Source: a virus. From it: a stretch of 64,000 nt of DNA. The first letter of the stretch is position 1. Each line of letters opens with the position of its first letter. The stretch spans positions 1 to 64,000 of the IMG/VR virus record IMGVR_UViG_3300031566_000001. One strand, 5' to 3'. Of the stretch, positions 33,567-52,083 are shown one piece after another. The notes beneath the pieces are model-generated. The model ran no database searches and was not told where the DNA came from. It saw nothing but the letters and a program-made list of their open reading frames with translations. Made by a program: the position numbers and the translations under genes.

Positions 33567-34601
33567 ATGTCTTACTGGAAGAATCGCCGTGTAATCGTGA
33601 CTGGCGGCGCTGGATTTCTCGGTTCCCACTTGGTTGATGCCCTGCGCCTTCTGGATTGCAAGCCGTTTGTGCCCCGTTCGGAGCAGTACGATCTGACGAC
33701 GGTTGATGGCGTGTGTGCTATGTTTGGGGATGCGATGACGCTGTGGGGCGAGCAAGGCTGTGAGACGCTGTTTCACCTGGCTGCGACCTGTGGGGGCATC
33801 GGCCTCAATCGCAAGCAGCCCGCTACGATGTGGCGGGATAATCTGCTGATGGGTTCAAACCTGCTGGATGCGGCCCACTTCTTCGATGTGAGTAAGTTCG
33901 TGGGTGTGGGTACGGTGTGCTCGTACCCGAAGCACTGCCCGACGCCGTTCTCGGAGCGGTCCTTTTGGGACGGTTACCCTGAGGAGACCAACGCACCCTA
34001 CGGCCTGGCCAAGAAGATGCTGCTGGTGGGCTTGCAGGCTTATGGGGCGCAGTTCGGCTTGCCGTGGGTGTACGTGGTGCCCACGAACCTCTATGGGCCG
34101 CGGGACCACTTCGACCCTGAAAGCTCCCACGTCATCCCGGCGATGATCCGCAAGTTCCTGGAGGCTAAGAGGGCGGGCGATCATGTGGTGTCGTTATGGG
34201 GTACGGGCAAACCGACGCGCGACTTCCTGTACGTGGGGGATTGTGTGAGGGCGCTCCTGTCAGCGGGGGAGCTGCTGGTGTCCGGTCCCTACAACGTGGG
34301 CTCAGGCCGTGAGGTCAGTATTGTGGACCTGGCTCATGTGGTGGCTAAGGCCGTGAACTACCAGGGCGATGTCAGCTTTGACGCCTCTATGCCCGATGGC
34401 CAGCCCAGGCGCGTGTTGGATAGTTCCAAGTTTGCGAAACTTACGGGGTGGCAGCCGGAGGTATCTCTGGAGGAGGGCCTGGACCGTATAGTGAAGTGGT
34501 ATGACATGGTCCAGCGCCTTGAGGATGACGAACGGGATATGACCACCAGTTGTATTGCCAAGGGGCAGCGCGCCCCTGCGGGCGCATCACCCTCGGTGTA
34601 A
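33567..34601 (+). CDS. fcl: GDP-L-fucose synthase
   Basis: 344 residues, short-chain dehydrogenase/reductase fold. NAD(P) motif TGGAGFLGSH (about 12-21), FHLAATCGGIGLNRKQP, GTVCSYPKHCPTPFSE, catalytic YGLAKK (about 145-150) and NLYGPRDHFDPESSHVIPAM closely follow the GDP-fucose synthase pattern, as does TRDFLYVGD. The enzyme turns GDP-4-keto-6-deoxy-mannose into GDP-L-fucose. No GDP-mannose dehydratase is visible in the window, so the substrate would come from the host or from outside this region. It pairs with the GT10 fucosyltransferase at 37164. Confidence 0.88.
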   Translation: MSYWKNRRVIVTGGAGFLGSHLVDALRLLDCKPFVPRSEQYDLTTVDGVCAMFGDAMTLWGEQGCETLFHLAATCGGIGLNRKQPATMWRDNLLMGSNLLDAAHFFDVSKFVGVGTVCSYPKHCPTPFSERSFWDGYPEETNAPYGLAKKMLLVGLQAYGAQFGLPWVYVVPTNLYGPRDHFDPESSHVIPAMIRKFLEAKRAGDHVVSLWGTGKPTRDFLYVGDCVRALLSAGELLVSGPYNVGSGREVSIVDLAHVVAKAVNYQGDVSFDASMPDGQPRRVLDSSKFAKLTGWQPEVSLEEGLDRIVKWYDMVQRLEDDERDMTTSCIAKGQRAPAGASPSV

Positions 34602-34626
34602 GCAAAAACATAGAAGGAGACAAGGC

Positions 34627-35295
34627 ATGAATGAGATTGCCGTATTTCAGATGGGGAAGTGTGGCTCGTCTACGGTCATCGAGTTGGCGCGGAAGTTGGG
34701 TATACACGCCTCGCGGGCGTACCATCCGATGAACCCGGTGCAGGCGCAGTACCCCAATGTCATCAGCATGGTCCGGGAGCCGGTGATCCGGAACGTCTCG
34801 GCATTCTTTTACGAAATGGCGGGCACCCTAGCGGTGACCGGCGAGGGGTACAGCCAGGTACTCCTTGACGAGTTCCTGATGTCCTGGGACAAGCACGACG
34901 TGCCGTTGACGTGGTTCTCTGAGCTGTTTCAGCCGGAGACCGGTATCAACGTCTATGCGGAGAAGTTTAACCGCAAGCGGGGCTGGTCCATCTACGAGAG
35001 CGGCGGTAGGCGCGTCCTGGTCATCAGGGCTGAGGCCCTGACGGGTAGCCTAGTGGCGGCCTTCGAGGCCTTGCTGGAGATGGACCTGGGAGTTAAGGAC
35101 GGCTTCGAGGTTGAGCACCGGGCCAGTGATGCCGAGCGGCCACACGGCGTGGGCGACCTGTACAAGGCGTTTGTGCAGCAGGCCGTGATGCCTGAGGCGT
35201 ATCTGGACCGCATGTATGGGAGCCGATACGCCAAACACTTCTACTATGCGAAGGAGCTTGATGCCTTCCGTGGATTCTGGAGTGCACCAAGATGA
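34627..35295 (+). CDS. Sulfotransferase-like P-loop protein 1
   Basis: 222 residues from ATG 34627 (GGAG upstream). FQMGKCGSSTV near the N-terminus is a PAPS-binding-type loop, and MVREPVIRNVSAFFYEM matches the 3'-phosphate-binding R...S segment of sulfotransferases. It would transfer sulfate to a sugar or other acceptor. Family-level call; capsule-type relatives are also possible. Confidence 0.65.
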   Translation: MNEIAVFQMGKCGSSTVIELARKLGIHASRAYHPMNPVQAQYPNVISMVREPVIRNVSAFFYEMAGTLAVTGEGYSQVLLDEFLMSWDKHDVPLTWFSELFQPETGINVYAEKFNRKRGWSIYESGGRRVLVIRAEALTGSLVAAFEALLEMDLGVKDGFEVEHRASDAERPHGVGDLYKAFVQQAVMPEAYLDRMYGSRYAKHFYYAKELDAFRGFWSAPR

Positions 35296-36011
35296 GGGTG
35301 TTCGTGACTACCAATGACCGGCACCTGTGGATTCTGCCGGCCTTTGCGCACCTGTTCAATCGCTACTGGAGCGAGCTGCAGCCTGTGGTGGTGGCGGGGT
35401 ACTCACAGCCGAACTTCGAGCTGCCCCCCAACTTCACATTCCACCAGATTGCCCCGCAGAACTACCCCGTGGAGAGGTGGTCTGATGGCGTGATTGAGTT
35501 CCTGCGGTCCATGGATGATGAGCTGTTCATCTGGATGCTGGAGGATATGTTGCTTCTGCGTACCGTGGACGTGCGGGCCATAGGGACCCTGGCGGAGTAC
35601 ATGATGATACACCACGAGGTCATCAGGATGGACCTCACCACGGATCGGCTCTATGCGGGGGCCTCACCGGGCCAGAGGCCCGATTATGAGTACTACGGGA
35701 GCATGGACCTGGTATGGTCTGAGCCGCACAGCCCGTATCACCTGAGCCTCCAGGCGGCGATTTGGAGGCGTGACTACTTATTGCACTACATGATTCCCGG
35801 TGAGACGCCCTGGAACCTGGAGATGGCGGGCACGGACCGGCTTTCGAGCACCCCGGAGGTGGTGGTCCTGGGCACGAGGCAGTTCCCTGTGCGGTACACG
35901 CTGGCACTAAAGAGCGACAAGCCTACGGAGCCGAGCATCACCGGGATGAGGGACGAGGACTATCGGGAACTGGTGGAGCGCGGCTGGTTGCCGGAGGGGT
36001 GTTTGACATGA
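35292..36011 (+). CDS. Putative glycosyltransferase-like protein
   Basis: 239 residues, ATGA overlap with the sulfotransferase. MRVFVTTNDRHLWILPAFAHLFNRYW at the front, LRSMDDELFIWMLEDMLLLRTVD in the middle (an acidic EDM in place of the usual DxD) and SPYHLSLQAAIWRRDYL suggest a GT-A-like fold. No firm family. Its C-terminal peptide GWLPEGCLT recurs in the tiny ORF at 36523, a trace of local duplication. Confidence 0.5.
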   Translation: MRVFVTTNDRHLWILPAFAHLFNRYWSELQPVVVAGYSQPNFELPPNFTFHQIAPQNYPVERWSDGVIEFLRSMDDELFIWMLEDMLLLRTVDVRAIGTLAEYMMIHHEVIRMDLTTDRLYAGASPGQRPDYEYYGSMDLVWSEPHSPYHLSLQAAIWRRDYLLHYMIPGETPWNLEMAGTDRLSSTPEVVVLGTRQFPVRYTLALKSDKPTEPSITGMRDEDYRELVERGWLPEGCLT

Positions 36012-36148: not shown

Positions 36149-36174
36149 GGCGAAATCTGAATGGAGGTTAGGAA

Positions 36175-36465: not shown

Positions 36466-36496
36466 TAGGGGGATTCAAAACCCCTAGTTCCTACTA
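36463..36496 (+). terminator. Hairpin after Cys-motif gene
   Basis: TAGTAGG (36463-36469) pairs with CCTACTA (36490-36496) and an inner GGG/CCC stem closes the loop. The following bases are AAAAGG rather than T, so termination on this strand is doubtful. Confidence 0.3.
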
Positions 36497-36522
36497 AAAG
36501 GCACTCGGCAGAGGCCTGAACC

Positions 36523-36905: not shown

Positions 36906-37167
36906 TGAAATGAGTCCCCCCGTTGAAGTTCGGTTGCGTGATTTAGAAAGTCAGAAGCTGGGTGAGGCTTTAATTCTCTGGAAGGAAAGTGGATATCCTG
37001 AGAGTGGGCATACCATTAATATATTGCGTCAATGCGTTATCAACTATACGGCGGCACAAAAGCTTGTAGAGACTAAGGTTCAATCAATGAAAATAAGTGC
37101 TGAGCTAGAAGCGATACTTGCGCGCCAACGGGCCCATGATAAGCTGGGAGTAAGGCTAGGACTGTGA
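36898..37167 (+). CDS. Hypothetical helical protein
   Basis: 89 residues, AT-rich, overlapping both neighbours. Mostly helical and charged, with no motif recognised. The downstream fucosyltransferase starts at its stop (GTGA), so the two are co-translated. Confidence 0.45.
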   Translation: MTDEMSPPVEVRLRDLESQKLGEALILWKESGYPESGHTINILRQCVINYTAAQKLVETKVQSMKISAELEAILARQRAHDKLGVRLGL

Positions 37168-38066
37168 TAACCGTCCCCCTCCGCGATGGCACCTTTCAGG
37201 GCGAGTCAATGTCCCTAAGCAGTGAGAACGCTGACGAGGCCCCGAAGTCCTTGCGCTGGCGCCACGTGCCGGATATTCCGGATGACGTGCCTGTGATGGT
37301 GTTCACGGATATGTGCCTGGATGAGGTTCTGCTGAGCCGGGCACCCACGAACATCGCCATCCTCATCGAGCCACCCGCACTCACTGCCACGCACTATGAG
37401 CAGGCCGTGATGCTGGAGGACCGTTTTGATGCCATATTCACCTACAGTCTGGAGCACCTACGGCGCGGGGGTCCGTGGCGGTTCTATCCCTATGGCGGTT
37501 CGAGGATCCGCGAGTGGGGCGTGTTTGACAAGAGCGCGGACGTGAGCATCATCGTATCGGTCAAGGCGGTCACGGAGGGCCACCGGCTGAGGCATGAGAT
37601 CGTCAAGCAGTTCGGTGAGTGCCTGTCTGTGTTTGGGGAGCCCTATACCGAGTACCTGGACCCTAAGCCGCCGGGGCTGAGGCCCTTCCGCTATTCCGTC
37701 GTCATCGAGTCCGGGCGTTCTGACTACTATTTCACGGAGAAGCTGATTGACTGCTTCTCGCAGGGCACGGTGCCGATCTATTGGGGGTGCCCTGGCATTG
37801 ATGGATTCTTCGACGAAGATGGAATTATCAGCTTTGAGACCCCGGACGACCTGGCATACATCCTGGCGTCCATCTCGGAGCAGGACTATTACGACCGTTT
37901 GCCTGCGATTTGCAGGAACCTGGAGCTGGCGCGCGGGTTCCGGTGTGCTGAGGACCATCTGGCGGCGGAGTACGGCTGGCTCTTCGAGGATAGTGAGGAG
38001 GCGGCCATGATGCGTGCACAGCGCAAAGAGCAATGGGGGGCTTTGTGTGAGAACCAACCTCACTGA
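37164..38066 (+). CDS. GT10 family alpha-fucosyltransferase
   Basis: 300 residues with GTG start. The GT10 signature is clear around residues 178-208: YSVVIESGRSDYYFTEKL followed by IDCFSQGTVPIYWG. The family transfers L-fucose from GDP-fucose, usually alpha-1,3. Upstream, RFYPYGGSRIREW resembles the family's conserved entry loop. With the GDP-fucose synthase at 33567 it gives the phage both synthesis and transfer of fucose. Cytoplasmic, with no membrane anchor seen. Confidence 0.85.
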   Translation: MITVPLRDGTFQGESMSLSSENADEAPKSLRWRHVPDIPDDVPVMVFTDMCLDEVLLSRAPTNIAILIEPPALTATHYEQAVMLEDRFDAIFTYSLEHLRRGGPWRFYPYGGSRIREWGVFDKSADVSIIVSVKAVTEGHRLRHEIVKQFGECLSVFGEPYTEYLDPKPPGLRPFRYSVVIESGRSDYYFTEKLIDCFSQGTVPIYWGCPGIDGFFDEDGIISFETPDDLAYILASISEQDYYDRLPAICRNLELARGFRCAEDHLAAEYGWLFEDSEEAAMMRAQRKEQWGALCENQPH

Positions 38067-38399: not shown

Positions 38400-38807
38400 G
38401 TGCTAAAGATTATCTATGATAATGGTCATGTAAGGATTGATGAACAGGAGAATTTGTACTGGCATGGCCCGACGCTTGGCCAAGAAGGCGGAACATGGTG
38501 GAGACAATGGTACTCGCACCCCGACATTTTCATTAAGGGTTCTGGCCCGTGTCGGTGTTACATACATTGGGTCGAAATCAAGACAGGTAAGCACATCGTC
38601 TTGGCTTACGATTTGGCTGCCCAGAGGGAGCAACCTTTAGTAATGTCTTCGGCGCATGGGTGTCAACTGGTAGCCTTTGACGAATTGCTTTTTCCAGAAG
38701 GTTCACTATTGAATGTCAATGATAGGGAGGTCAGGGATATAGGATATAATGGCCCGCATCTGAAGGAGCCGCCGGAGTGGTTCAATGCAGACGACTTTAC
38801 TGGATAG
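38400..38807 (+). CDS. Hypothetical protein
   Basis: 135 residues. GTG 38400 is set by GGAGGT upstream. Beta-rich and aromatic (GGTWWRQWYSHPDIFIKG, CYIHWVEIKTGKHIV). No family. AT-rich, and its end overlaps the sulfotransferase start by 23 bases. Confidence 0.5.
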   Translation: MLKIIYDNGHVRIDEQENLYWHGPTLGQEGGTWWRQWYSHPDIFIKGSGPCRCYIHWVEIKTGKHIVLAYDLAAQREQPLVMSSAHGCQLVAFDELLFPEGSLLNVNDREVRDIGYNGPHLKEPPEWFNADDFTG

Positions 38808-39516
38808 TGATAAGCGCCTATTCTTCATCATCGGCCCGCCCCGGTCTGGTACGACCATCGTAGCCAGCGTGTTCAACTCCCTAGAGGATGGGTTCTGCCT
38901 TGGGGAACCGCACTGGCTCCACGAGGCCGAGAAAGGCGAGGCGGACGCGCAGACTTACGGGAAGGTAGAACAGTGGCGCAGGCCTGTGGATGATTATCAG
39001 CTCATCATGCAGGTCAACGTGATACCGATTCTAAACCGGGGGCCGTTTCACGTTGGGGGCTACAAGGAGACCTGGCAATACTTCCGTCATACCTGCGAGC
39101 CGCTGTTGGCGGCGCACGTTCCGTTGGTGGACTTCTTCGTGGTGGTGCTGAGGGACCCGAGGCTGGCCTTGGCCTCACAGCGGGCCTTGGGCTGGCAACA
39201 CCTGAGGCCCAGGGATACCAGCAAGGACTATCTGCGGTTGGGCGAACTGGCGCAGCACCCAAAGGCTGTGCTGGTGATCCTGGAGGACTTCGTGGTGGAC
39301 CCGCTGGGGTATCTGAATACGAGGCTCCCCTTCCAGATTGAGGGGCCTTTGGAGCTGCAACCTACAGGGCACAGGTTTGGGGATACGGTTGCCAATGAGA
39401 GTGAAACGGTGAACGCGGATGCGCCGGGGCAGAGGGTTATGGACCTGAATGAGAAATGGGTCCGGGCACTGGCCCCGGCTATGGGGGTATGGGAGCGATG
39501 GAAGAGCAAGACCTGA
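38785..39516 (+). CDS. Sulfotransferase family protein 2
   Basis: 243 residues. RLFFIIGPPRSGTTIVASVF (about 11-30) is a textbook 5'-phosphosulfate loop, and FVVVLRDPRLALASQRAL is the 3'-phosphate-binding segment. It should use PAPS to sulfate a glycan or lipid. No PAPS synthesis genes are visible here, so the donor would come from the host. Tightly overlaps the methyltransferase that follows. Confidence 0.82.
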   Translation: MQTTLLDSDKRLFFIIGPPRSGTTIVASVFNSLEDGFCLGEPHWLHEAEKGEADAQTYGKVEQWRRPVDDYQLIMQVNVIPILNRGPFHVGGYKETWQYFRHTCEPLLAAHVPLVDFFVVVLRDPRLALASQRALGWQHLRPRDTSKDYLRLGELAQHPKAVLVILEDFVVDPLGYLNTRLPFQIEGPLELQPTGHRFGDTVANESETVNADAPGQRVMDLNEKWVRALAPAMGVWERWKSKT

Positions 39517-40325
39517 GAGCATTGATGAGACGATACACGGTGGAGCACCTGGATCCTGGGGAGCACCTGGATCCTGGCTGGTTTGGCACCTTCTACGGCA
39601 CTGCGGCGGCTCAGTTTCAGCGGCACATTGAGTCCCTGCCGGGTACGGTATACGGCGATGACCCCAAGCAGAGGCCGTTTGATAACGTATTCACCTGGGG
39701 CCACGATCATGACTTCGGGGCCTTTCAGATGAAGGGCCAGATGGGAGACCGGCACATCCGGGTCATTGAGGCCTTCCTGGAGATGGGCGCGGAGTTCAAG
39801 GGCCATGTGCTAGATGTGGGCTGCTGGACGGGTGGCACGTCGCTCCTACTGGCAGCGATGGGGTGCACGGTGACGGCCATTGAGGAGGCAGTGCAATATG
39901 CCGATGTGGTTTCATACTTGGGCCACGTTTTCCAGGTGCAGGGCCTTGTTGTCATCCCTAATTCTATTTATGATGAGGGCCGCTTCGCTGAGCCTTATGA
40001 TATGATCCTGTGTGCGGGCGTCCTGTATCACGTCACTGATCCGGTGCGTGCTCTGCGCATCATATTTGAGAAGTTGGTGGACGGCGGCACGCTGCTGCTG
40101 GAGACCGCGGTTCATCAGGGTGGCGGCAAGCTCCTGACCTATTGTGGCCCTACCGCGCCAGGCTATCGATGGTTCCTGCCTACGGCGGAAACGCTGGTTG
40201 CGATGTTGATTGACGTGGGGTTTACAGACCTAGAGTATGGGTTGCGTGCCGACGGTAGCCGGATTGTCGTGGTTGCTACAAGGAAGGAGTACACGACCAT
40301 GATGACGGCGGGGGTATCAAGATAA
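39498..40325 (+). CDS. SAM-dependent methyltransferase (class I)
   Basis: 275 residues from ATG 39498. SAM motif VLDVGCWTGGTSLLLAAMG (about 104-122), acidic end of strand 2 at TAIEEA, and YDMILCAGVLYHVTDPVRAL as motif IV. The N-terminus holds an exact tandem repeat (HLDPGEHLDPG). Within a sugar-modifying cassette, a glycan O- or C-methyltransferase is likely; the acceptor is unknown. Confidence 0.75.
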   Translation: MEEQDLRALMRRYTVEHLDPGEHLDPGWFGTFYGTAAAQFQRHIESLPGTVYGDDPKQRPFDNVFTWGHDHDFGAFQMKGQMGDRHIRVIEAFLEMGAEFKGHVLDVGCWTGGTSLLLAAMGCTVTAIEEAVQYADVVSYLGHVFQVQGLVVIPNSIYDEGRFAEPYDMILCAGVLYHVTDPVRALRIIFEKLVDGGTLLLETAVHQGGGKLLTYCGPTAPGYRWFLPTAETLVAMLIDVGFTDLEYGLRADGSRIVVVATRKEYTTMMTAGVSR

Positions 40326-40336
40326 GGGGAAAGGAT

Positions 40337-40540
40337 ATGAGAACGTGGGAGTATAAGCGCGTTGGCTTACCTGACAAGCCAGACATTTCTGATTGGTTGG
40401 ATTCACTGGATAAAGAAGGCTGGGAATTGGTTCAGATATATCAGGACCCCCGATATCTTAATGATATGTTTAAGCTATATCCAGTAGGGATTTTTAGACG
40501 AGCCTTTGTTAAGCAATCTGAACGGGTGGAGGCCCCATGA
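40337..40540 (+). CDS. DUF4177-like small protein
   Basis: 67 residues. The pattern WEYKRVGLPDKPD...LDSLDKEGWELVQI fits DUF4177, a small domain of unknown role. AT-rich relative to its neighbours. Overlaps the next gene (ATGA). Confidence 0.6.
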   Translation: MRTWEYKRVGLPDKPDISDWLDSLDKEGWELVQIYQDPRYLNDMFKLYPVGIFRRAFVKQSERVEAP

Positions 40541-41076
40541 CCATAACTGCGTTTGACCTCTCGGACGGGAACGAGCCGATGAGCTACGGCGAGATCAATT
40601 TCTTGGTCTCATTGGTTAAGAAGCTCCCTGCGGAACCGATCATCGTCAACATTGGGGCTGCGGACGGCGTGTCTACCGTGGCCATGCTGGAGGCCCGTAG
40701 GGATGCCTTCATTTTCTCTGTGGACATCGGCGAGTGCCCGCAGGAACGCGCCAACCTGGAGGCTGCGGGTCTGGATACGGCCCGCGTGATACGGCTCCTG
40801 GGCCGTAGTCAGGACATCGGCAAAGAGTTCCCCTGCGAGGCCGATATGGTGCTTGTGGACGGCGGGCATGATTACAAGTCGGTGAAGGGTGATATCGAGG
40901 TTTGGCCCTGGAAGGTCAAGGTGGGCGGCACTTTGGCCTTTCACGACTACATCGAGCCGCCCCGTCCCGCTAACAACCCCAGTGAAGCGTACGAGGCGGT
41001 GAATGAGAACCTGCCTGCTGAGTTTGAACTGACCGGCCAGGTGGACAGGCTGATTGCGTTTCAGAGGATGTCGTGA
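40537..41076 (+). CDS. Class I SAM methyltransferase
   Basis: 179 residues. IIVNIGAADGVSTVAMLEAR (about 35-54) is the SAM motif; MVLVDGGHDYKSVKGDIEVW is the motif IV metal-site region typical of the Methyltransf_24/O-methyltransferase group. It closely resembles the C-terminal domain of the fusion at 43041 (VNIGACFGTSALALLEARED), so the two are paralogous. Confidence 0.75.
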   Translation: MTITAFDLSDGNEPMSYGEINFLVSLVKKLPAEPIIVNIGAADGVSTVAMLEARRDAFIFSVDIGECPQERANLEAAGLDTARVIRLLGRSQDIGKEFPCEADMVLVDGGHDYKSVKGDIEVWPWKVKVGGTLAFHDYIEPPRPANNPSEAYEAVNENLPAEFELTGQVDRLIAFQRMS

Positions 41077-42234: not shown

Positions 42235-42235
42235 G

Positions 42236-43040: not shown

Positions 43041-44219
43041 ATGGAGCCGCGGGGCATTCTCTACTTTGCAATAGGTGACGAATATCTGATGCGGGCGCAG
43101 AAGGCTGTAGCTCGCGTGCGGGATGTGTGGCCGGGTATGGCCTGCGCCATCTGGACCGAACGCTCGCCGGGGCCGGTGATGCTCTCGCGGATGGAGGCCT
43201 GGCGGCAATCACCTTTTGAGCGGACCTTGGCTCTGGATGCGGACGTATGGCTGGCGGAACCTGTACCAGAGCTGTTTGACCTGTTGGACCGGTTTGACCT
43301 GGCGGCGACCCTTGCGCCATGGCGTGAGGGACATCCTGTAGCTGTCCCTGCGGCGTTTCCAGAGCATAACTGTGGCGTGGTAGCCTTTCGCAAGAATGGC
43401 CTGTTACTGAGCCTTGTGGACGACTGGGAGCAGCGGTTCGGACGACGTTATGAGGGGTTGGAGGAGACCAAAAGCGTTCACAATGACCAACCGGCCTTCC
43501 GGGAGGCCCTGTATCATTCTGTTCTGCGTATTGCTACCTTGCCCGCGGAATACAACTGGCGGGGCGTGGGCTATGTTTGGGGCAAGGTGAAAGTGTTGCA
43601 TACCCGGAGACCGCCACAGAGGGTAGCACACGAAATCAACGAGCAGCTTGGGCCAAGGGTGTGTATGAACTGGCAGATACACCATGGAGATAATTCGGCA
43701 ATGATGCTGGAAGCGACCGACCTTACAGGTGAGGAATATCACCACGAGGTGGAGGACGTGCTTACGTTGCAGCACCTGGCGGGGCTGCTCCCGGCGGACC
43801 CGGTGGTGGTGAACATCGGGGCCTGCTTCGGCACATCGGCCTTGGCGCTCCTGGAGGCCCGTGAGGACCTGTTTGTGTTCAGCATTGACATCAAGCCTTG
43901 CCTTGAGGAGCGGGAGAACCTGGCGCGGTCGGGCGTGGACCCGGCGCGGTGCGTGCGGGTGCTGGGGCGGTCTCAGGAGGTCGGGCAGTATTGGCCGCGT
44001 GCGGTGGATATGGTTTTCATGGACGGTTCCCATGCCCGCTCTGACGTGGTGGCGGACCTGGAGGCCTGGCTGCCCCGAATCAAGCCGGGGGGTATCGTGG
44101 CCTGCGACGACTATGCGAAAGGGTGCACTCCGGCGGTGAAGCCTGTGGTGGATGAGATGCTGATGGACAAGTACGAGATGGTCCTTCACGTGGGGGACAT
44201 CGTGGCGTTCAGGGTGTAA
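43041..44219 (+). CDS. Glycosyltransferase-methyltransferase fusion (GT first)
   Basis: 392 residues. Residues 1-225 form a GT-A transferase: ILYFAIGDEYLMRAQKAV, DxD in TLALDADVWLAEPV (about 63-76), NCGVVAFRKN, and a late VKVLHTRRPPQRVAHEIN. Residues 245-392 form a class I methyltransferase (VVVNIGACFGTSALALLEAR near 254-273, DMVFMDGSHARSDVVADL). One chain could add and then methylate a sugar. The opposite domain order occurs in the gene at 47754. Confidence 0.8.
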   Translation: MEPRGILYFAIGDEYLMRAQKAVARVRDVWPGMACAIWTERSPGPVMLSRMEAWRQSPFERTLALDADVWLAEPVPELFDLLDRFDLAATLAPWREGHPVAVPAAFPEHNCGVVAFRKNGLLLSLVDDWEQRFGRRYEGLEETKSVHNDQPAFREALYHSVLRIATLPAEYNWRGVGYVWGKVKVLHTRRPPQRVAHEINEQLGPRVCMNWQIHHGDNSAMMLEATDLTGEEYHHEVEDVLTLQHLAGLLPADPVVVNIGACFGTSALALLEAREDLFVFSIDIKPCLEERENLARSGVDPARCVRVLGRSQEVGQYWPRAVDMVFMDGSHARSDVVADLEAWLPRIKPGGIVACDDYAKGCTPAVKPVVDEMLMDKYEMVLHVGDIVAFRV

Positions 44220-44438: not shown

Positions 44439-44669
44439 ATGCCCGAAGACAAAGAGGAAGCAAGAGAGGAAACGCTGGAGCAGTTGGGGCTCCGGTACTT
44501 GGCCGCGCAGGAGCAACGTCTGCGGGTCTGCCAGCGCGAGAAGGCCCTAAAGAAGGAACTTGCAGCGGCTATGCGAGATGCCGGGAAGGAAGCCGTGATA
44601 GTGGGGCCGAAGGTGGTGATTTTGCACCCCGGTATAGATTATGACAGTCTGGAAGTGGCAGACCTGTGA
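44439..44669 (+). CDS. Hypothetical coiled-coil protein
   Basis: 76 residues, strongly helical and charged (EEAREETLEQLGLRYLAAQEQ), ending in a beta hairpin (AVIVGPKVVILHPGID). No family is recognised. It ends at the start of the next gene (GTGATG). Confidence 0.45.
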   Translation: MPEDKEEAREETLEQLGLRYLAAQEQRLRVCQREKALKKELAAAMRDAGKEAVIVGPKVVILHPGIDYDSLEVADL

Positions 44670-45478
44670 TGAACGAACAGCAACTCAAAGACGCCTTTGC
44701 ATCACTGGAGCCGATGAGTGACGAGGCCCCGCCCCGGTACACGTGGGAGCGGCACAGGTGGGAGATGCGGCGCCATGTGCGTCGGGATCCCATCGCGGTA
44801 TTCCTGAGCTGGCCCACGGTGACGGCCACCATGTTTGCGGGGGAGACCCCCTTCATCCGGTCTGAGCTGGAGGCCCTGCGGGCGCAGCCTGATTGGGAGA
44901 CCCTTTGGCTTCCGGCCATTGAGGACAGCGGCGTGGGCCAGGCCCCGAGGATGTCAGGGGAGCCGTCTACGAACGCCAATATGGTGCATCAGGCGTTTCA
45001 CCTGATGATGTGGAACAAGGCTACGCTCAAGGAACTGCGGGATCTGGAGACCATCACGGAGTTCGGCGGGGGCTATGGGGCTATGGCCCTGATTGCCTCA
45101 CGGCTGGGGTTCCGCGGGACCTACCGGATGGTGGACTTTCCGGAGATGTGCCTGCTTCAGAGCTACTACCTGTCGCGGCATGAGCTGGGCTGTGCGGTGG
45201 AGTTCCTGGAGGCCATCGGGCCGCCACGTTCGGACCTGTTGGTGGCCTGTTATTCATTGAGTGAAGTCCCGTTGGCGGACCGTAAGCCCTACCTTGGCGG
45301 GGGCCGTACGGATCATGGAGCGGCCAGTTACCTCTTTGCCATGCAGGACCGTTGGGATGACGTGGACAACCTGGATTGGGTATATGATTTTGAGATGAAT
45401 GAGAGGGATGACCTGCTGTGGTCCATCTTCCCGATGGTGAGGCCGGGGCACTGGTACGCGATGGGGGGAATGAAGTGA
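44669..45478 (+). CDS. Putative sugar O-methyltransferase
   Basis: 269 residues. ITEFGGGYGAMALIASRLG (about 130-148) is motif I of the putative sugar O-methyltransferase group; RMVDFPEMCLLQSYYLSR and LLVACYSLSEVPLADR fit the following motifs. It would methylate a sugar hydroxyl, consistent with its glycan-gene neighbours. The stop overlaps the GTG start of the helicase fusion. Confidence 0.72.
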   Translation: MNEQQLKDAFASLEPMSDEAPPRYTWERHRWEMRRHVRRDPIAVFLSWPTVTATMFAGETPFIRSELEALRAQPDWETLWLPAIEDSGVGQAPRMSGEPSTNANMVHQAFHLMMWNKATLKELRDLETITEFGGGYGAMALIASRLGFRGTYRMVDFPEMCLLQSYYLSRHELGCAVEFLEAIGPPRSDLLVACYSLSEVPLADRKPYLGGGRTDHGAASYLFAMQDRWDDVDNLDWVYDFEMNERDDLLWSIFPMVRPGHWYAMGGMK

Positions 45479-47757
45479 CCTATGATTCATTTCTTAAATC
45501 GAAGAGGATGATTAGGCGTGATCGGGGCAAAGAGTTTACTACCGATGACGTGCATTCTAAGCTGTTTGCTTTCCAGCGGGATATTACGCTCTGGGCAGTA
45601 CGGAAGGGCATGGCAGCGGTATTCGCTGATACCGGGCTGGGCAAGACCTTCATTCAATTGGAATGGGCCAGGTTGCTAGGGGAGAAAACGCTCATTATTG
45701 CCCCGCTCAGTGTGGCCAGGCAAACGGTAAGAGAAGCTCGCAAGATTGATCTTGAAATAGGTTATGTTCGTAGTCAAGATGCGGTTGTGGGCGACGGTCA
45801 GCTCTGGATAACGAACTATGAAATGGTGAACGCCTTTGATGTATCGGCATTCGGCGCGGTGGTGCTGGACGAATCCAGTATATTGAAATGCATCTCAGGC
45901 AAGACGCGCCGCAAGCTGACGGAGGCTTGTCAGGCTGTTCCCTATCGCCTGTGTTGCACAGCAACGCCTGCCCCGAATGACTTCATAGAGCTGGGCAATC
46001 ATGCGGAGTTTTTGGGCGTGTGTTCGCGTGCTGAGATGCTGGCTATGTTCTTCGTCAATGCTAACAAAGAGCATACTATGTTTGTCAATGGAAAGTCGTA
46101 TCGCAGGAAGGGGAGCAATAAGGGCGGCCAGGAGTGGCGGTTGAAGCACCATGCCGAAGAGCCTTTCTTCCGCTGGTTGGCATCTTGGGCTATGGCCATA
46201 CGGAAGCCGTCTGACTTGGGATATGACGATATGGATTTCAGACTTCCTGCACTTAGGCTGCATAAGCACTTTGAGCAGGCGAAGTATGAGCCGGGTGATA
46301 GGCTGTTTTTCACTCGCGCTAGGGGTATAAGGGAGCATTCGGCTATTCGTAGAGCGACGCTTGGCCCACGCCTTGAACGGCTTCAGGAGATCATTGACGG
46401 AGACGGCCAACAGTGGATAGTCTGGGTGGGGCTGGATGAGGAAGGCCGGGCTGCGACGGAGGCTCTGGACGGTGCGGTAGAAGTCAAGGGTAGTGATTCG
46501 CCTGACTACAAGGCCAGTTCCTTTGAGGACTTTCAGGATGGCAAGTTTCGTGTGCTTGTGACCAAACCTACTATCGGCGGGTTCGGCATGAACTTCCAGA
46601 ATGCCCACAAGATGGCGTTCCTGGGGCTTTCGCACTCGTGGGAACAATACTATCAGTGTGTGCGCAGGGAGTGGAGGTATCTTCAGGAGCACCCTGTAGA
46701 CGTGCACCTGATTATGTCGGATATCGAGGCTGATGTGTACCGCAACGTGATGCGTAAGGATGCCCAGGCCAGGCGGCTACGGGAAGGTTTGATTGGCAAG
46801 ATGCATCTTTATGAGAGGGAGGAATTGGGGATGGGAACGTCTGTAGTGCAAGATCAGGCAGGATGTGTTGTCAAAGGCAATACTTGGAAAGCGTTGCGGG
46901 GCGACTCCTGCGAGAGGCTGGCGGAACTTGACAATGATTCGGTAGACCTGTGCATATACTCACCGCCGTTTGCTGATCTCTATACGTATAGTGATAGCCC
47001 CCGCGACCTGGGCAATTCGCGTGATTGGAAGGAGTTCTTGTGTCACTATTCTTTTGTGATCCGGGAGGTTTTGCGTGTAGTCAAGCCGGGGCGCTTGTGC
47101 TGCGTTCACACCTCAGACATCCCGGCGTTGGCGCAGAAGGATGGGTATATCGGCATCAAGGATTTTCCTGGCGCGGTGATCGCTGCGCACGAGGCGGAGG
47201 GATGGGTATTCCATGGACGCATTCTAGTCGGCAAAAACCCGCAGGCCCAGGCCATACGGACGCACTCTAAGGCGCTGTTGTTTGTCCAGTTGCGTAAGGA
47301 CTCAGCGGACAGTCGCCCGGCGCTTGTCGATCATGTTCTGTTGTTCAAGAAACCCGGTGAGAACGCTGTGCCGGTGACTCCGGTAGAAAACGGTGAGATG
47401 GACAATGACCTATGGGTACAGTGGGCTAATGGGATCTGGACTGATATTCAGGAGACGGATACTCTTCAGTACCAGCACGCGCGGGAGGCCGATGATGAGA
47501 AGCATATTTGCCCCTTGCAATTGCCGACGATCCGGCGGTGCGTGATGCTCTATTCCAATCCTGGAGAGACAATACTATCACCGTTTGCGGGCATCGGTAG
47601 TGAGGGTTTTGAGTCTGTCAAGGCCGGGCGGGGTTTCGTGGGTATAGAGCTGAAACCAGAGTATTTCGAGGTCATGGTCGGAAACCTCCAGAAAGCGGAG
47701 GCTGTAGCGAATCAGCCTGATTTGTTTTCGTTAGTCAATGAGGAGTCAGCGCAATGA
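45475..47757 (+). CDS. SNF2-type helicase / DNA methyltransferase fusion
   Basis: 760 residues with GTG 45475 after GGGGGGAA. The N-terminal half is an SF2/SNF2-like ATPase: Walker A ADTGLGKTF (about 51-59), VVLDESSILK as motif II, LCCTATPAPNDF as motif III, and YQCVRREWR near motif VI. The C-terminal half is an amino-methyltransferase: catalytic SPPFADLY (about 496-503) and SAM motif LSPFAGIGSEG (about 702-712), a beta-class order. It probably moves along and methylates phage DNA to resist restriction. Less GC-rich than neighbours, suggesting transfer. No nuclease partner is seen. Confidence 0.85.
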   Translation: MTYDSFLKSKRMIRRDRGKEFTTDDVHSKLFAFQRDITLWAVRKGMAAVFADTGLGKTFIQLEWARLLGEKTLIIAPLSVARQTVREARKIDLEIGYVRSQDAVVGDGQLWITNYEMVNAFDVSAFGAVVLDESSILKCISGKTRRKLTEACQAVPYRLCCTATPAPNDFIELGNHAEFLGVCSRAEMLAMFFVNANKEHTMFVNGKSYRRKGSNKGGQEWRLKHHAEEPFFRWLASWAMAIRKPSDLGYDDMDFRLPALRLHKHFEQAKYEPGDRLFFTRARGIREHSAIRRATLGPRLERLQEIIDGDGQQWIVWVGLDEEGRAATEALDGAVEVKGSDSPDYKASSFEDFQDGKFRVLVTKPTIGGFGMNFQNAHKMAFLGLSHSWEQYYQCVRREWRYLQEHPVDVHLIMSDIEADVYRNVMRKDAQARRLREGLIGKMHLYEREELGMGTSVVQDQAGCVVKGNTWKALRGDSCERLAELDNDSVDLCIYSPPFADLYTYSDSPRDLGNSRDWKEFLCHYSFVIREVLRVVKPGRLCCVHTSDIPALAQKDGYIGIKDFPGAVIAAHEAEGWVFHGRILVGKNPQAQAIRTHSKALLFVQLRKDSADSRPALVDHVLLFKKPGENAVPVTPVENGEMDNDLWVQWANGIWTDIQETDTLQYQHAREADDEKHICPLQLPTIRRCVMLYSNPGETILSPFAGIGSEGFESVKAGRGFVGIELKPEYFEVMVGNLQKAEAVANQPDLFSLVNEESAQ

Positions 47758-49019
47758 TCTTTTCCAATCGTCACGAGGTGGAGACACACCTGGCTGAGCA
47801 GGCTGACGGCGGCGTGATTGTAGAGGTTGGGGTGGGCAAGGGTGACGGGTTGGTGGCCCTGCTCAACGGCACCCGTTACGGAAGGCTCTTGCCCGTGTAT
47901 GCCGTGGATCCCTACGCGCCATACGTGGACAAATTGGGTGGCACCTACGGCCCGGAGTGCAAGCAGGAAGCCGTCGATCAGGTGGTGGGTACGGGCCTGG
48001 GGCGTTTGGTGGCCTTCGTCGAAGAGGACGGCGTGCTGGTGGGCGAGAATTGGGACTTGCCTACGGCCCTGGTGTGGATTGACGTGTCTATGGAGTACGA
48101 CGGTCTCAAATGCGTCTGGGATGCCTGGGCGGACAAGGTTATGGAGGACGGGCACATCGCCATCGCGGGGCTGGGTTACAGTAGCTTGGGCACGGCGCGG
48201 GTGATGCAGGAGGCCGTGGACTCAGGGAACTTCGTGCGGGTACTGGAGGGGCAAGACCGGGTGGCCGTGCTGCGCAGGAATCCACGGCACAGGAGGGCCG
48301 CGTTCTACATCGTGGATGGTGAGCCGTATGCAGATGAGGCGGCCTATAGCGCGTCCAGCCTCAAGGAGCACATGCCCAGGGTGGAGACCTTCCTGTTCGC
48401 TGTGGGGGGCACGAAGGACAGGGATTGCATTGACCACGTAGTGACGTTGCCCCCTCGGGAGAGCGAACTGTGGTACCTGGACAGCACGCGGTACTTCAAT
48501 TGGGCTGTGGGGCAGCTTCATGAGTACAACCGGCTCTTGTACCTTGATACGGATACGTGGGTGTCCTGGGATTGCCTGGATATGTGGTGGCTCCTGGAGC
48601 AGTTCGACGTGTGCCTGGGTCATTCTGCGGGCCGGGAGGCCATGCCCAGTGCTATCGGAACGCCGCCTGCGTTCACCACGCTGTCCATCGGGGTGAGCCT
48701 CTTCTGCAACAACGCGAAGGTCCGGGCCACACTGGCGGACTGGCAGGCATTCTATGAGAAGTACGCGCATATCTACGGCGACAATGACGAGTCGCCCCTG
48801 CGGGACGTGCTGTGGCTCAACCGTCACGGGCTGAAAATGTATATCCTGCCCCCGGAGTACAATGCGCGTGTGGGCTTCGGGTGCTGGCTCTATGGGCGGG
48901 TCCGGGTAGTCCATGCCCGGCTGCCCCGGCTTCGGCATGTGGCGGAGGAGCTGAATGAGCACACGGTCATGCGCATGTGGCGTCCTGATGATGGGTTCCT
49001 GTGGTATCACCAGAAGTGA
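47754..49019 (+). CDS. Methyltransferase-glycosyltransferase fusion (MT first)
   Basis: 421 residues. Residues 1-170 are a class I methyltransferase-like domain (GVIVEVGVGKGDGLVALL, AVDPYAPY, ALVWIDVSMEYDGLKCV). Residues 185-421 are a GT-A transferase: FLFAVGGTKDRDCID, RLLYLDTDTWVSWDCL with the DxD, and RVRVVHARLPRLRHVAEELN, closely echoing the transferase domain at 43041. The same two activities are thus fused in opposite order in two genes. Confidence 0.78.
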   Translation: MIFSNRHEVETHLAEQADGGVIVEVGVGKGDGLVALLNGTRYGRLLPVYAVDPYAPYVDKLGGTYGPECKQEAVDQVVGTGLGRLVAFVEEDGVLVGENWDLPTALVWIDVSMEYDGLKCVWDAWADKVMEDGHIAIAGLGYSSLGTARVMQEAVDSGNFVRVLEGQDRVAVLRRNPRHRRAAFYIVDGEPYADEAAYSASSLKEHMPRVETFLFAVGGTKDRDCIDHVVTLPPRESELWYLDSTRYFNWAVGQLHEYNRLLYLDTDTWVSWDCLDMWWLLEQFDVCLGHSAGREAMPSAIGTPPAFTTLSIGVSLFCNNAKVRATLADWQAFYEKYAHIYGDNDESPLRDVLWLNRHGLKMYILPPEYNARVGFGCWLYGRVRVVHARLPRLRHVAEELNEHTVMRMWRPDDGFLWYHQK

Positions 49020-49026
49020 GGGGGAC

Positions 49027-49770
49027 GTGAGCGACGGCTGCGGGCGGTTCATAGGGCCATATCCTTGCTGCACCATCATCACGGGTGACGCTAAGGAGCT
49101 TACTCCGGCGATACCGGATGAGAGCGTGGACTTGATAGTGACTGACCCGCCCTACTTCTTGCCAGTTCAGTCCTATGTTGGGGTGCGTGGTGAGGGCTAT
49201 ACGAGGAGGACGCTGGCTGACACGTCGATACTTTCTGGATTCTTTGGGGATCTATTTGCGGATTTGGGCCGTGTTCTAAAGCAGACGGGAAGCGCCTATG
49301 TCTTCTGTGATGGGCAGAGTTACCCGCTGTTCTATCCAGCCATGTTTCCGCACTTCAAGTATGTGCGGCCCCTGATATGGGACAAGATTGTTTCCTACAA
49401 CGGATACACGTGGCGACACCAGCATGAGTTGATTGCGTGGGGCGAAGGAGTGGGGGCGCAGAGGGTTCCCACGGGCGATGGGGACATTCTGAGATGTAGG
49501 GGGGTTCTCCAGAAAGACAGAAGGCATCCCGCAGAAAAGCCACTCGCTCTATTGCAGCAACTCATAGCCAAGCATGAACGGGGGCGGGTTGTATTGGACC
49601 CATTTGTTGGCTCAGGGACCACCCCCATAGCCGCATGGCTAGAGGGCGATCACTACCTCGCCTTCGAGATAGACCCCGACGTAGCAGAGCGGGCGAGGGA
49701 GCGGGTGAGGAACACCCAGCCACCCCTCTTCGTGATGCAGCCAGAGCAGACAATACTAGAACTGGAATGA
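49027..49770 (+). CDS. DNA adenine/cytosine-N4 methyltransferase
   Basis: 247 residues from GTG 49027. DLIVTDPPYFLPVQS (catalytic DPPY, about 33-36) comes first and LDPFVGSGTTPIAAWLEGDH (SAM site) near the end, the beta-class order of phage-borne amino-methyltransferases. HPAEKPLALLQQLI is also typical. It would protect phage DNA. Its first 30 residues are duplicated in the fragment at 36008. No cognate restriction enzyme is visible. Confidence 0.88.
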   Translation: MSDGCGRFIGPYPCCTIITGDAKELTPAIPDESVDLIVTDPPYFLPVQSYVGVRGEGYTRRTLADTSILSGFFGDLFADLGRVLKQTGSAYVFCDGQSYPLFYPAMFPHFKYVRPLIWDKIVSYNGYTWRHQHELIAWGEGVGAQRVPTGDGDILRCRGVLQKDRRHPAEKPLALLQQLIAKHERGRVVLDPFVGSGTTPIAAWLEGDHYLAFEIDPDVAERARERVRNTQPPLFVMQPEQTILELE

Positions 49771-49780
49771 GGTGTAACCA

Positions 49781-50074
49781 ATGGATAGTAACGTACTCAC
49801 TCACAGCGCGGTGCTCCCAAGGCGCAACGTCAAGCGGCTGCGGCGTTGCCTGAACCCTCAATGCCTCTACGTGGCGGGCGGCGGCAAGATGCCTTTGAAG
49901 ATCACTCGCATTGGCGAGTATACCCGGCTTGGTTGCTCCAAGTGCGGGTCCGTAAGTGTGTTCAACCCGGTAGCGACGGTAAGGCCTGACAAGGCCAGGC
50001 ACATCTTCGTGGCTCGTGACCGTGGGGGCGTGGTGGAGCACATCTTCCCCAAGGCGAGGGTATTGGTACCGTGA
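49781..50074 (+). CDS. Zinc-ribbon-like protein
   Basis: 97 residues. RRCLNPQCLYVAGGG and LGCSKCGSVSV supply two Cys pairs for a zinc ribbon. Unknown role. The next gene begins at its stop (GTGA). Confidence 0.55.
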   Translation: MDSNVLTHSAVLPRRNVKRLRRCLNPQCLYVAGGGKMPLKITRIGEYTRLGCSKCGSVSVFNPVATVRPDKARHIFVARDRGGVVEHIFPKARVLVP

Positions 50075-50550
50075 GAAGGCGTTACTTCGAGTGGGACTAT
50101 GTCGCCAACAGGGTCATTGAGTGGGTGCGTGTGGGTACGTGCTGCCGGTGCGGTGCGTGTTGCCGGGGGTCCATCGGTTACAATTTCGAGAATGTTAAGA
50201 CGTACCATGCGAATAAGGCGGGCGGCTATTATACCACTGGCAGGGGTGTCTGGCAGGAGATCCGTGCGGGCCGGTATCGGCACTTTTTCCGGATGGAGTA
50301 CATGGCCGTGAAGGGGCGGGGGTGGTGTGGCAGTTTCGAGAATGGCCTTTGTGCTGAGTATGAGCATCGGTCCTGGATTTGCCGGGAGTGGCCCTTCTCG
50401 CCCCGGTGCATTGCGCCGTTTGCGGAGTGCACCTATGGGTTCCGTGAGGTAGACCGCTGGCCGTTCGTGGTGGATGTCCCCAAGGATCCGGCAAAAGAGG
50501 GGAAGGATGCTGGCGGTTTTGTTCATGTGCCGCGGAGAGGGGTCCCGTGA
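50071..50550 (+). CDS. YkgJ-like Cys-cluster protein
   Basis: 159 residues. GTCCRCGACCRG (about 22-33) followed by CAEYEHRSWICREWPFSPRC (about 97-116) fits the YkgJ family (CxxCxxCC plus C..Y..RP.xC..[FY]P), thought to bind a metal or Fe-S cluster. The biochemical role of the family is poorly defined. Overlaps the sulfotransferase that follows. Confidence 0.7.
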   Translation: MRRRYFEWDYVANRVIEWVRVGTCCRCGACCRGSIGYNFENVKTYHANKAGGYYTTGRGVWQEIRAGRYRHFFRMEYMAVKGRGWCGSFENGLCAEYEHRSWICREWPFSPRCIAPFAECTYGFREVDRWPFVVDVPKDPAKEGKDAGGFVHVPRRGVP

Positions 50551-51215
50551 TCACTAAGCGCCTGGTTTACATCCACGTCTTCCGGACCGGCGGGTACATG
50601 GTGCAGGGGGTCTTGCGAAAGGTCCCTGGCCTGGTGATGGTCTCTGACAGGCCCACGGAGCACCTCACCTATGCACAGATGACCACGGTATGCGCTCAGC
50701 AGCGCATGTCGAGGCCACTGGCTGCTGTGTTCGTTCGCAACCCGTTTGACTGGTACGTGTCGATGTGGTGCTGGGTCAATACGGCCCCGAATGTGCCTTC
50801 CTTCCCTAGCTTCCGGGCATACCTGGGGGCGATTGATGAGAGGCGCTTTGGCATCACGGGAACGGGGCGCAACTACAGCAGATTCACCGACCATTGGAAG
50901 GACATGGGTGCTGACTCAGCAAAGTGGACGGGACGTTTCGAGCGCCTGCAGGAGGACTTCGTGGCCATCATGCTGGAGGCCATGCCTGAACTGGTGAACG
51001 AGAAGATGCTGAGGCGCCTTATAGTCAAGGAACCCATCCATCACCCCAGCAGGCATCCCCAGACCGGCAAGCACCCAGGGGCCTATCAGCAGTACTACGA
51101 TGCGGAGACGAGGGCGCTGGTAGAGGGGTGGGACGGCGCGCTGTTGGAGCGCTTCGGCTACAATTTCGAGGGGGAGGAGGCGGATGATGAAGATTTATCC
51201 CATACCGGTGCCTGA
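50547..51215 (+). CDS. Sulfotransferase family protein 3
   Basis: 222 residues. YIHVFRTGGYMVQGVLRKV (about 8-26) matches the loop of carbohydrate sulfotransferases (HIxRTGGTxL-like), and VFVRNPFDWYVSMWCW (about 61-76) the 3'-phosphate site. The C-terminal LLERFGYNFE is typical of the family. Third sulfotransferase-like gene in the cassette; overlaps the exostosin-like gene. Confidence 0.78.
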   Translation: MITKRLVYIHVFRTGGYMVQGVLRKVPGLVMVSDRPTEHLTYAQMTTVCAQQRMSRPLAAVFVRNPFDWYVSMWCWVNTAPNVPSFPSFRAYLGAIDERRFGITGTGRNYSRFTDHWKDMGADSAKWTGRFERLQEDFVAIMLEAMPELVNEKMLRRLIVKEPIHHPSRHPQTGKHPGAYQQYYDAETRALVEGWDGALLERFGYNFEGEEADDEDLSHTGA

Positions 51216-52083
51216 CGAGTTCCGGCCTGCCAGTCAGGGCTATGCCATGCCGCCACACTGCCCGGTGGAGGGTTACGGCGTGGAGCAGGACTTCGACCTG
51301 TGGCTCCGGCAGCGCCCTACCATTCTGGCCCCAAGTATTGAGGAAGCTGATTGGTACTACCTACCGGTGTACTGGAATCGTCTTTTTATCGCTACCTGGA
51401 AGTGGGCTCAGGATGAGGCCGCTATTGAGCGGTGCACCCGGTATATCGAGGACCTCCGGGGGGCCTTGGACTTCTCGCGGGTGTTCACCGTCTGCGAGTG
51501 GGACCTGACCACGGAACGGCAGGAGATCGGGATTGGGGAGATGACCGTGCTCACGGCAGGGCGGCGGGACCACACGGGCATCGATGTCCCTTTGCTCTGC
51601 GCGCCCCATGGTGTCCCTCCCATGCAATATGCCAAGCGGCACCTGGCGTCGTTCGTGGGCAACGTCGGAACCTCCGGCTGGCGTCAGGCCATGCAGGAGG
51701 CCCTAGAGGTCTATGACGGGTGCCTGATTGAGCACGCGCAGAACGGTTCCGCCTACTTCCGGGACGTGATGACTGAGAGCTACGTAGCCCTGGCCCCCAG
51801 GGGGCACCGGGGTCAATCGTTCAGGTTCTACGAGGCCATGGACATGGGCGTGGCCCCGGTGCTGATCGGCGACATGGACACGCGGCCCTTCAAGAACTGG
51901 ATTGATTGGGACTCATGCTCGTACTACGTGCCTGACGCCTCGGAGTTGCCGGGGTTCCTAGACGGCCTTGATTTGGAGGACGCGCTTCGTCGCGGTGTAC
52001 GGGCGGCGCAGGTGTATCATGAGGAGCTGCGGTTTGGAAGGTGGTGCCGGTTCGTTGTGCCGGAGCTTTTGAGCGTGCCGTGA
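51184..52083 (+). CDS. Exostosin-like (GT47) glycosyltransferase
   Basis: 299 residues. The donor-site region SYVALAPRGHRGQSFRFYEA followed by MDMGVAPVLIGD (about 198-229) is the exostosin hallmark, with SFVGNVGTSGWRQAMQEAL upstream as the family's F.G......R segment. It would extend or cap a glycan. Last gene of the cassette, followed by strong hairpins. Confidence 0.8.
   Translation: MMKIYPIPVPDEFRPASQGYAMPPHCPVEGYGVEQDFDLWLRQRPTILAPSIEEADWYYLPVYWNRLFIATWKWAQDEAAIERCTRYIEDLRGALDFSRVFTVCEWDLTTERQEIGIGEMTVLTAGRRDHTGIDVPLLCAPHGVPPMQYAKRHLASFVGNVGTSGWRQAMQEALEVYDGCLIEHAQNGSAYFRDVMTESYVALAPRGHRGQSFRFYEAMDMGVAPVLIGDMDTRPFKNWIDWDSCSYYVPDASELPGFLDGLDLEDALRRGVRAAQVYHEELRFGRWCRFVVPELLSVP

What the first reader, a model, noticed from the sequence alone, without database searches (positions are those of the whole stretch)
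33567..52083. An 18-kb phage glycan-modification cassette: fucose, sulfate and methyl chemistry
In one region the phage encodes GDP-L-fucose synthase, a GT10 fucosyltransferase, an exostosin-like transferase, three sulfotransferase-like enzymes, several likely sugar methyltransferases, GT/MT fusions and a radical-SAM-like protein. That is enough to build a fucosylated, sulfated and methylated glycan, on virion proteins, host surface or possibly hypermodified DNA. GDP-mannose dehydratase and PAPS synthesis are missing here, so host supply is implied. I know of few phages with such a combined set.
Basis: partly seen in the sequence, partly recalled or inferred. Interest (0 to 1): 0.78.

Follow-up and report, generated by a model that had tools for sequence, protein, structure and literature searches.

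The report
Soil phages' conserved glycan-building gene cassette
Two related uncultured phages share an 18-kb block of about fourteen sugar-, sulfate- and methyl-transferring enzymes, kept under strong selection, which most likely decorates their own particles with a fucosylated, sulfated, methylated glycan; sugar decoration of phages is known, but this enzyme combination appears unusual.

Summary
Window 33,567-52,083 encodes a GDP-L-fucose-synthase-like enzyme, a GT10-like and a GT47-like glycosyltransferase, three sulfotransferase-like proteins, several methyltransferases, two GT/methyltransferase fusions and a radical-SAM/SPASM protein. Correction: two genes inside it are DNA methyltransferases, not glycan enzymes.

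New facts. (1) The 143-kb source record is an assembly chimera of two related phages (A and B) joined at a shared IS605 tnpB gene. (2) Both carry the cassette in the same place and order; fifteen of the seventeen compared pairs are 69-90% identical with dN/dS 0.09-0.26, like their head and tail genes. (3) The glycan genes are shared one-for-one, while the DNA methyltransferases differ. Pontimonas phage phiPsal1, a relative by terminase, has GT/methyltransferase genes in that same slot. (5) No gmd, APS kinase or thymidylate synthase was found.

Best reading: cytosolic glycosylation of virion proteins using host GDP-sugar and PAPS. Target and chemistry are inferred, not shown. It is a new variant of known phage glycan cassettes (cyanophages, mycobacteriophages).

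The parts
33567..34601 (+). GDP-L-fucose synthase-like SDR (GMER/Fcl)
   Evidence: Tyr145/Lys149, Cys118 and His188 equivalents kept in A and B, Ser107 position is Thr. Ortholog in B 70% identical.
34627..35295 (+). sulfotransferase-like (Pfam NKWYS), P-loop GKCGSST and R50...S58 motif
   Evidence: Pfam 1e-8 over cut-off, B 1.4e-10; alignment; dN/dS 0.155.
35292..36011 (+). unassigned, probably glycosyltransferase-like (WMLEDM acidic motif, by eye); no family match
   Evidence: No Pfam, NCBIfam, PHROG or phage match; 85% identical in B, dN/dS 0.145; structure model unusable, pLDDT 42.
37164..38066 (+). GT10-like fucosyltransferase
   Evidence: E182, E192-K193 of the donor motif kept in both phages.
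38785..39516 (+). sulfotransferase (Sulfotransfer_3), GPPRSGTT and LRDPR...S motifs
39456..40325 (+). SAM methyltransferase (Methyltransf_23 type)
   Evidence: Pfam 8e-13.
40537..41076 (+). SAM methyltransferase (Methyltransf_24)
   Evidence: Pfam 1.5e-14; 40% identical to the methyltransferase half of 43041-44219.
41710..42234 (+). SAM methyltransferase (Methyltransf_24)
   Evidence: Pfam 8e-6.
42110..42985 (+). radical SAM/SPASM protein; the true start is probably near 42236; non-canonical Cys spacing NTCPYAWLHKEC
   Evidence: SPASM 5e-8, Radical_SAM 2e-5 in A and 8e-8 in B.
43041..44219 (+). fusion: N-terminal glycosyltransferase-like (LDADVW, by eye) and C-terminal Methyltransf_24
   Evidence: Pfam 2e-17 for the methyltransferase.
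44666..45478 (+). putative sugar O-methyltransferase (TIGR04371-like, weak)
   Evidence: NCBIfam 3.5e-5, 23.5 bits against a cut-off of 44; 87% identical in B, dN/dS 0.13.
45418..47757 (+). SNF2/DEAD helicase fused to N6/N4 DNA methylase; not a glycan gene, no ortholog in phage B
47754..49019 (+). fusion in reverse order: N-terminal Methyltransf_24 and C-terminal glycosyltransferase-like (LDTDTW, by eye); most conserved cassette protein
   Evidence: 90% identical in B, dN/dS 0.095.
48955..49770 (+). N6/N4 DNA methylase; not a glycan gene
   Evidence: Pfam 1e-21.
50071..50550 (+). CxxCxxCC putative metal-chelating protein, role unknown
   Evidence: Pfam 2e-4, just under cut-off.
50547..51215 (+). 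sulfotransferase-like (Sulfotransfer_2 / PHROG galactose-3-O-sulfotransferase), HVFRTGG and VRNP...S motifs
51184..52083 (+). exostosin-like glycosyltransferase (GT47)
   Evidence: Pfam 5e-12 over cut-off; PDB exostosin-1 2.8e-4.
15831..18470 (+). fused GT4-GT2-GT2 glycosyltransferase, 879 aa, directly after the putative capsid gene; probably part of the same system
   Evidence: Pfam Glycos_transf_2 1e-48 (two stretches), Glycos_transf_1 3.5e-13; kept in B (83%) and strain C (99.4%).
14270..15769 (+). putative major capsid protein (by position only); possible glycan acceptor
   Evidence: Most conserved large virion-module protein, 91% A/B; no family match; structure model unusable.

Best explanation
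The cassette is a phage-encoded, cytosolic glycosylation pathway that decorates the phage's own virion proteins. The GMER-like enzyme turns host-derived GDP-4-keto-6-deoxymannose into GDP-L-fucose. The fused GT4-GT2-GT2 protein beside the capsid gene starts and extends a glycan on a head or tail protein. The GT10-like, GT47-like and the two GT/methyltransferase fusion enzymes add further sugars, including fucose. The three sulfotransferases sulfate it with host PAPS and the methyltransferases cap it. Shown here: the enzyme families, the fixed gene order, purifying selection and the gene neighbourhood. Inferred: the substrates, the order of reactions, the virion target and the benefit (most plausibly protection, adhesion or masking of particles).
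For: Family assignments. Same cassette, same order and place in two phages, with dN/dS 0.09-0.26 for all compared proteins but the two smallest, matching 0.07-0.30 for head and tail genes: the enzymes are used and the glycan is probably stable between the phages. Glycan genes are shared one-for-one while the DNA methyltransferases differ. Multi-domain GT directly after the putative capsid gene in three strains. Pontimonas phage phiPsal1, the best terminase hit by E-value among deposited phages, carries group-1 GT, methyltransferase and GT2 genes between its annotated capsid and neck genes. No cassette enzyme shows a clear membrane segment (19-residue hydropathy at most 1.82) and the proteins scanned match no flippase, polymerase or oligosaccharyltransferase family. 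Cluster O mycobacteriophages carry three GTs and an O-methyltransferase that modify capsid and tail tube (PMC11600133 citing Freeman 2023).
Against: No glycan, acceptor or activity is demonstrated. The capsid identity of 14,270-15,769 rests on position; no family match and the structure model failed. The GT fusion is about 15 kb away from the cassette, so their functional link is inferred. GT10, two of the three sulfotransferase calls in phage A and the sugar O-methyltransferase fall below curated cut-offs. The fusion and GT4/GT2 enzymes could also act on a host glycan before export.
Confidence: 0.55

Rival explanations
1. The enzymes remodel a host surface glycan (capsule, teichoic acid, LPS or glycolipid) before export, for superinfection exclusion or cell-surface camouflage.
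For: The fucose, sulfate and methyl chemistry is typical of bacterial surface glycans; NKWYS is named for capsular polysaccharide synthesis; cyanophage fucose cassettes were interpreted by their authors as cell-wall modification (PMC9602691). Cytosolic GTs could act on lipid-linked intermediates.
Against: No membrane GT, flippase, polymerase or ligase found among the cassette proteins scanned. The gene set is the same in the two phages, whereas surface-converting modules usually differ between related phages (general knowledge). A GT fusion sits in the head module.
Confidence: 0.25
2. The cassette hypermodifies phage DNA bases with sugars, sulfate and methyl groups.
For: GTs and sulfotransferases have been linked to phage nucleotide modification (statement in PMC10829341); DNA methylases are interspersed.
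Against: No thymidylate-synthase-family gene in either phage, with the control ringing in 9 genomes. No TET/JBP match either, but that search had no positive control. GT10 and GT47 families are not known DNA glycosyltransferases (general knowledge).
Confidence: 0.07
3. A loose collection of auxiliary genes with separate roles rather than one pathway.
For: DNA methyltransferases and small unknown ORFs are mixed in; some family assignments are weak.
Against: Conserved order, overlapping ORFs and uniform purifying selection in A and B; GC and GC3 match the rest of each genome.
Confidence: 0.13

Closest known systems
Mycobacteriophage cluster O virion glycosylation genes (three GTs plus an O-methyltransferase; PMC11600133, citing Freeman et al. 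2023)
   Same: Phage-encoded GTs and a methyltransferase in a tailed actinobacteriophage, reported to modify capsid and tail-tube proteins.
   Different: No fucose synthase, GT10, GT47 or sulfotransferase is mentioned there; the cassette proteins tested had no mycobacteriophage match in the phage collection.
Cyanophage S-SCSM1 and other cyanophages with GDP-fucose genes (PMC9602691)
   Same: GDP-L-fucose synthase, fucosyltransferases and several GTs in one phage; GMER (36.6%) and GT10-like (30-39%) homologues occur in cyanophages.
   Different: S-SCSM1 also has gmd and GDP-mannose 3,5-epimerase; the word sulfotransferase does not occur in that paper; a T4-like phage.
Uncultured huge phage LR756501 (735 kb)
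   Same: GT10-like, GT47-like and Methyltransf_24-like genes within 5 kb, plus GMER elsewhere.
   Different: No match to our sulfotransferases in the two stretches examined; unannotated.
Pontimonas phage phiPsal1 (MG835450)
   Same: GT, methyltransferase and GT2 genes between capsid and neck genes; related terminase, 26% identity.
   Different: Small set; no fucose or sulfate genes annotated; capsid genes not detectably homologous.
Chlorovirus PBCV-1 capsid glycan (A111/114R three-domain GT, A064R GT-GT-methyltransferase; PMC7826918)
   Same: Virus-encoded multi-domain GTs and a GT/methyltransferase fusion; fucose and methylated sugar on a capsid protein.
   Different: Virus of algae; that glycan is described as made of neutral sugars, without sulfate; an analogy, not a relative.

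Membership tests
GDP-L-fucose synthase (GMER/Fcl) | Full-length extended SDR similarity to characterised GMERs | tested here: met
   PDB GDP-fucose synthases 8e-61 to 1e-54 over residues 6-312; NF047922 1.6e-75 but below its equivalog cut-off.
GDP-L-fucose synthase (GMER/Fcl) | Catalytic Ser/Tyr/Lys plus Cys and His of the epimerase step | tested here: met
   Tyr145, Lys149, Cys118, His188 conserved in A and B; the Ser position is Thr in both. Residue roles from general knowledge.
GDP-L-fucose synthase (GMER/Fcl) | Activity on GDP-4-keto-6-deoxymannose | not testable with these tools
   Needs enzyme assay.
GT10 fucosyltransferase | Pfam PF00852 above curated cut-off | tested here: not met
   20.3 bits against 23.9 in A, 12.6 in B. 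Filed as GT10-like only.
GT10 fucosyltransferase | GDP-fucose donor motif (FEN...YVTEK...P.YWG) | tested here: met
   Aligned with 2nzw over that motif, E 1.2e-4; phage GT10-like relatives to 2e-41.
GT47 exostosin | PF03016 above cut-off | tested here: met
   46.1 and 49.7 bits against 33.4.
PAPS-dependent sulfotransferases (three genes) | Family match over cut-off | tested here: inconclusive
   NKWYS met in A and B; Sulfotransfer_3 met in B only; third gene below cut-off.
PAPS-dependent sulfotransferases (three genes) | 5'-phosphosulfate loop and 3'-phosphate Arg...Ser motif | tested here: met
   By eye in the alignments, conserved in A and B for all three.
Phage virion glycosylation system | Glycosyltransferase genes linked to virion structural genes | tested here: met
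   GT4-GT2-GT2 fusion after the putative capsid gene in three strains; the large cassette itself follows the lysis genes.
Phage virion glycosylation system | Glycosylated head or tail proteins | not testable with these tools
   Uncultured phages; needs virions.
DNA base hypermodification system | A dedicated base-modifying initiator such as a thymidylate-synthase homologue | tested here: not met
   PF00303 absent, control rings; other initiators not tested with a control.

The most novel reading that the evidence does not exclude
Tailed phages that coat their capsid or tail with a fucosylated, sulfated and O-methylated oligosaccharide, an anionic, heparinoid- or fucoidan-like coat, built by their own enzymes in the bacterial cytosol.
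Probability: 0.35. Interest if true: 0.75.

Novelty: new variant of a known kind. Interest (0 to 1): 0.5.

Why it matters
Phage particles are usually treated as bare protein. A conserved enzyme set for a sulfated glycan would extend known virion glycosylation to charged, sulfated decorations, suggest a role for unannotated GTs and sulfotransferases in phage metagenomes, and offer soluble enzymes for making sulfated fucosyl glycans. The near-equal selection on cassette and virion genes argues that the product is part of the phage's basic biology, not an optional extra.

Tried and rejected
Structure prediction of the putative capsid protein (pLDDT 29) and of 35,292-36,011 (pLDDT 42) gave unusable models, so no fold search was run. 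tnpB homologues in bacterial genomes did not point to a host: best 42% to a Thermoflexus MAG, then many phyla. Relatives by cassette, terminase or capsid protein in IMG/VR were only near strains from three metagenomes. Strain C and one B fragment did not help on the cassette: no GMER match in those incomplete contigs. TET/JBP search had no working control. Corndog record not held, Freeman 2023 not held. The idea of a 143-kb genome with an internal duplication was rejected: separate contigs show two phages. Capsid homology to phiPsal1 was tested and not found; only the terminase matches. PDB searches for the Sulfotransfer_3 and NKWYS proteins and the 47,754 fusion gave nothing useful.
Full report
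Check of the observation. The strongest assignment is the GDP-L-fucose synthase-like enzyme. GT47 is above its Pfam cut-off. GT10 is slightly below its cut-off but matches the donor-binding motif of solved fucosyltransferases and phage GT10-like proteins with E-values to 2e-41. The three sulfotransferase-like proteins differ in strength: NKWYS over cut-off, Sulfotransfer_3 over cut-off in the phage B copy, and the third supported by a PHROG named galactose-3-O-sulfotransferase. All three keep both PAPS-binding motifs in two phages (by eye). Two genes in the stretch are DNA methylases, one fused to a helicase.

The source record is a chimera. The 143,142-base record contains two diverged copies of one phage genome. 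A separate 69,345-base contig matches record positions 1-63,787 and 136,022-143,142 at over 99.7%. The stretch between is a second phage, B, confirmed at 100% over 21.6 kb by another contig. The switch is at an IS605-type tnpB gene that is 98% identical between the phages. Entering and leaving B at the same gene implies that its 73.8-kb unit was closed in the assembly graph (inference). The cassette at issue lies wholly in phage A and is confirmed by two separate contigs.

Conservation. Phage B carries the cassette at record positions 108,499-125,927, in the same order after the lysis genes. Fifteen of the seventeen compared cassette pairs are 69-90% identical with dN/dS 0.09-0.26; two very small ones are less alike and higher (0.42, 0.55). 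Head and tail genes give 0.07-0.30 (Nei-Gojobori, dS near 1, so values are approximate). GC and GC3 do not stand out. The DNA methyltransferases are the exception: the A helicase-methylase is missing in B, which has other N6/N4 methylases at two other places in the block. The glycan set is therefore stable while the DNA methylation set turns over.

At 15,831-18,470 lies an 879-aa protein with one GT4-type and two GT2-type domains, 61 bases after the putative capsid gene. It is 83% identical in B and 99.4% in strain C, where its neighbours on either side are 98-100% identical to those of A. The best terminase match by E-value among deposited phages, Pontimonas phage phiPsal1, has annotated capsid, group-1 GT, methyltransferase, GT2 and neck genes in a row. 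Apart from the terminase, the structural proteins tested show no detectable homology to phiPsal1, so this is a resemblance of layout. The capsid call in our phages rests on position only, since profile searches and structure prediction failed.

Mechanism. The proposed pathway is sequential, cytosolic glycosylation of virion protein. GDP-mannose dehydratase was not found (the only two matches are the A and B fucose-synthase-like genes) and neither was APS kinase (control rings in 11 genomes), so GDP-4-keto-6-deoxymannose and PAPS must come from the host. Phage A's contig may be missing some sequence, but the B unit appears complete. No cassette enzyme has a clear membrane segment by a simple hydropathy scan, and no family for export or polymerisation was found among the proteins scanned. 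This favours an acceptor inside the cell, such as a virion protein, over a host surface polysaccharide. DNA hypermodification is disfavoured by the lack of a thymidylate-synthase-family gene.

Comparison with the known. Fucose genes in phages are published for cyanophage S-SCSM1, and GMER and GT10-like relatives occur in many cyanophages and in a 735-kb uncultured phage that also has GT47-like and Methyltransf_24-like genes nearby. Virion glycosylation by GTs with an O-methyltransferase is reported for mycobacteriophages. The sulfotransferases and the methyltransferase-GT fusion at 47,754 found no tblastn match in 50,697 phage records, though a phage protein family named galactose-3-O-sulfotransferase exists in PHROGs. 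Full-text searches found no paper describing a phage with this combination, within a library that lacks most subscription journals.

Caveat on the title: that the source is soil is my recollection of these IMG metagenome identifiers, not a tool result; nothing in the argument depends on it.

Verdict. A real, selected, coherent cassette; a new variant of phage glycan cassettes with an unusual sulfation component. The virion target is the best reading at about 0.55.

Noticed in passing
window 62421-63632 and record 136218-137429: An IS605-type tnpB gene, 98% identical between two phages whose other genes are mostly 65-90% identical, apparently caused the assembler to join them into one 143-kb record; window bases beyond about 63,787 belong to the other phage.
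   Followed up: yes
window 42236-42985: Radical SAM/SPASM protein lacks the usual CxxxCxxC; the conserved N-terminus reads HTHCVAFELSNTCPYAWLHKECP in A and nearly the same in B, suggesting an unusual cluster-binding pattern (Cx5HxxC or Cx8C).
   Followed up: partly
window 45418-47757, 48955-49770; record 110864-112090, 120996-122393: N6/N4 DNA methylases turn over between the two phages inside an otherwise conserved block; one is fused to a SNF2-like helicase, another to a ParB-like domain.
   Followed up: partly
window 56211-59913: AAA ATPase, DUF5131 and a DUF2201 metallopeptidase/VWA protein in a row, resembling a MoxR/CoxE-type pair, between the cassette and the replication genes.
   Followed up: no
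window 19754-21265 and 25032-27386: Two virion-module proteins match beta-propeller repeats (BNR/YCF48-like and Rax2-like), which seems unusual for a tail module.
   Followed up: no
L106 (3300031566_000161): Strain C shares 98-100% identical capsid-side proteins with phage A but its terminase differs much more (86% best match), which points to recombination between these phages.
   Followed up: partly
L104 (LR756501 325,455-337,529): An unannotated 735-kb huge phage holds a dense run of ORFs on one strand with GT10-, GT47- and methyltransferase-like matches.
   Followed up: partly
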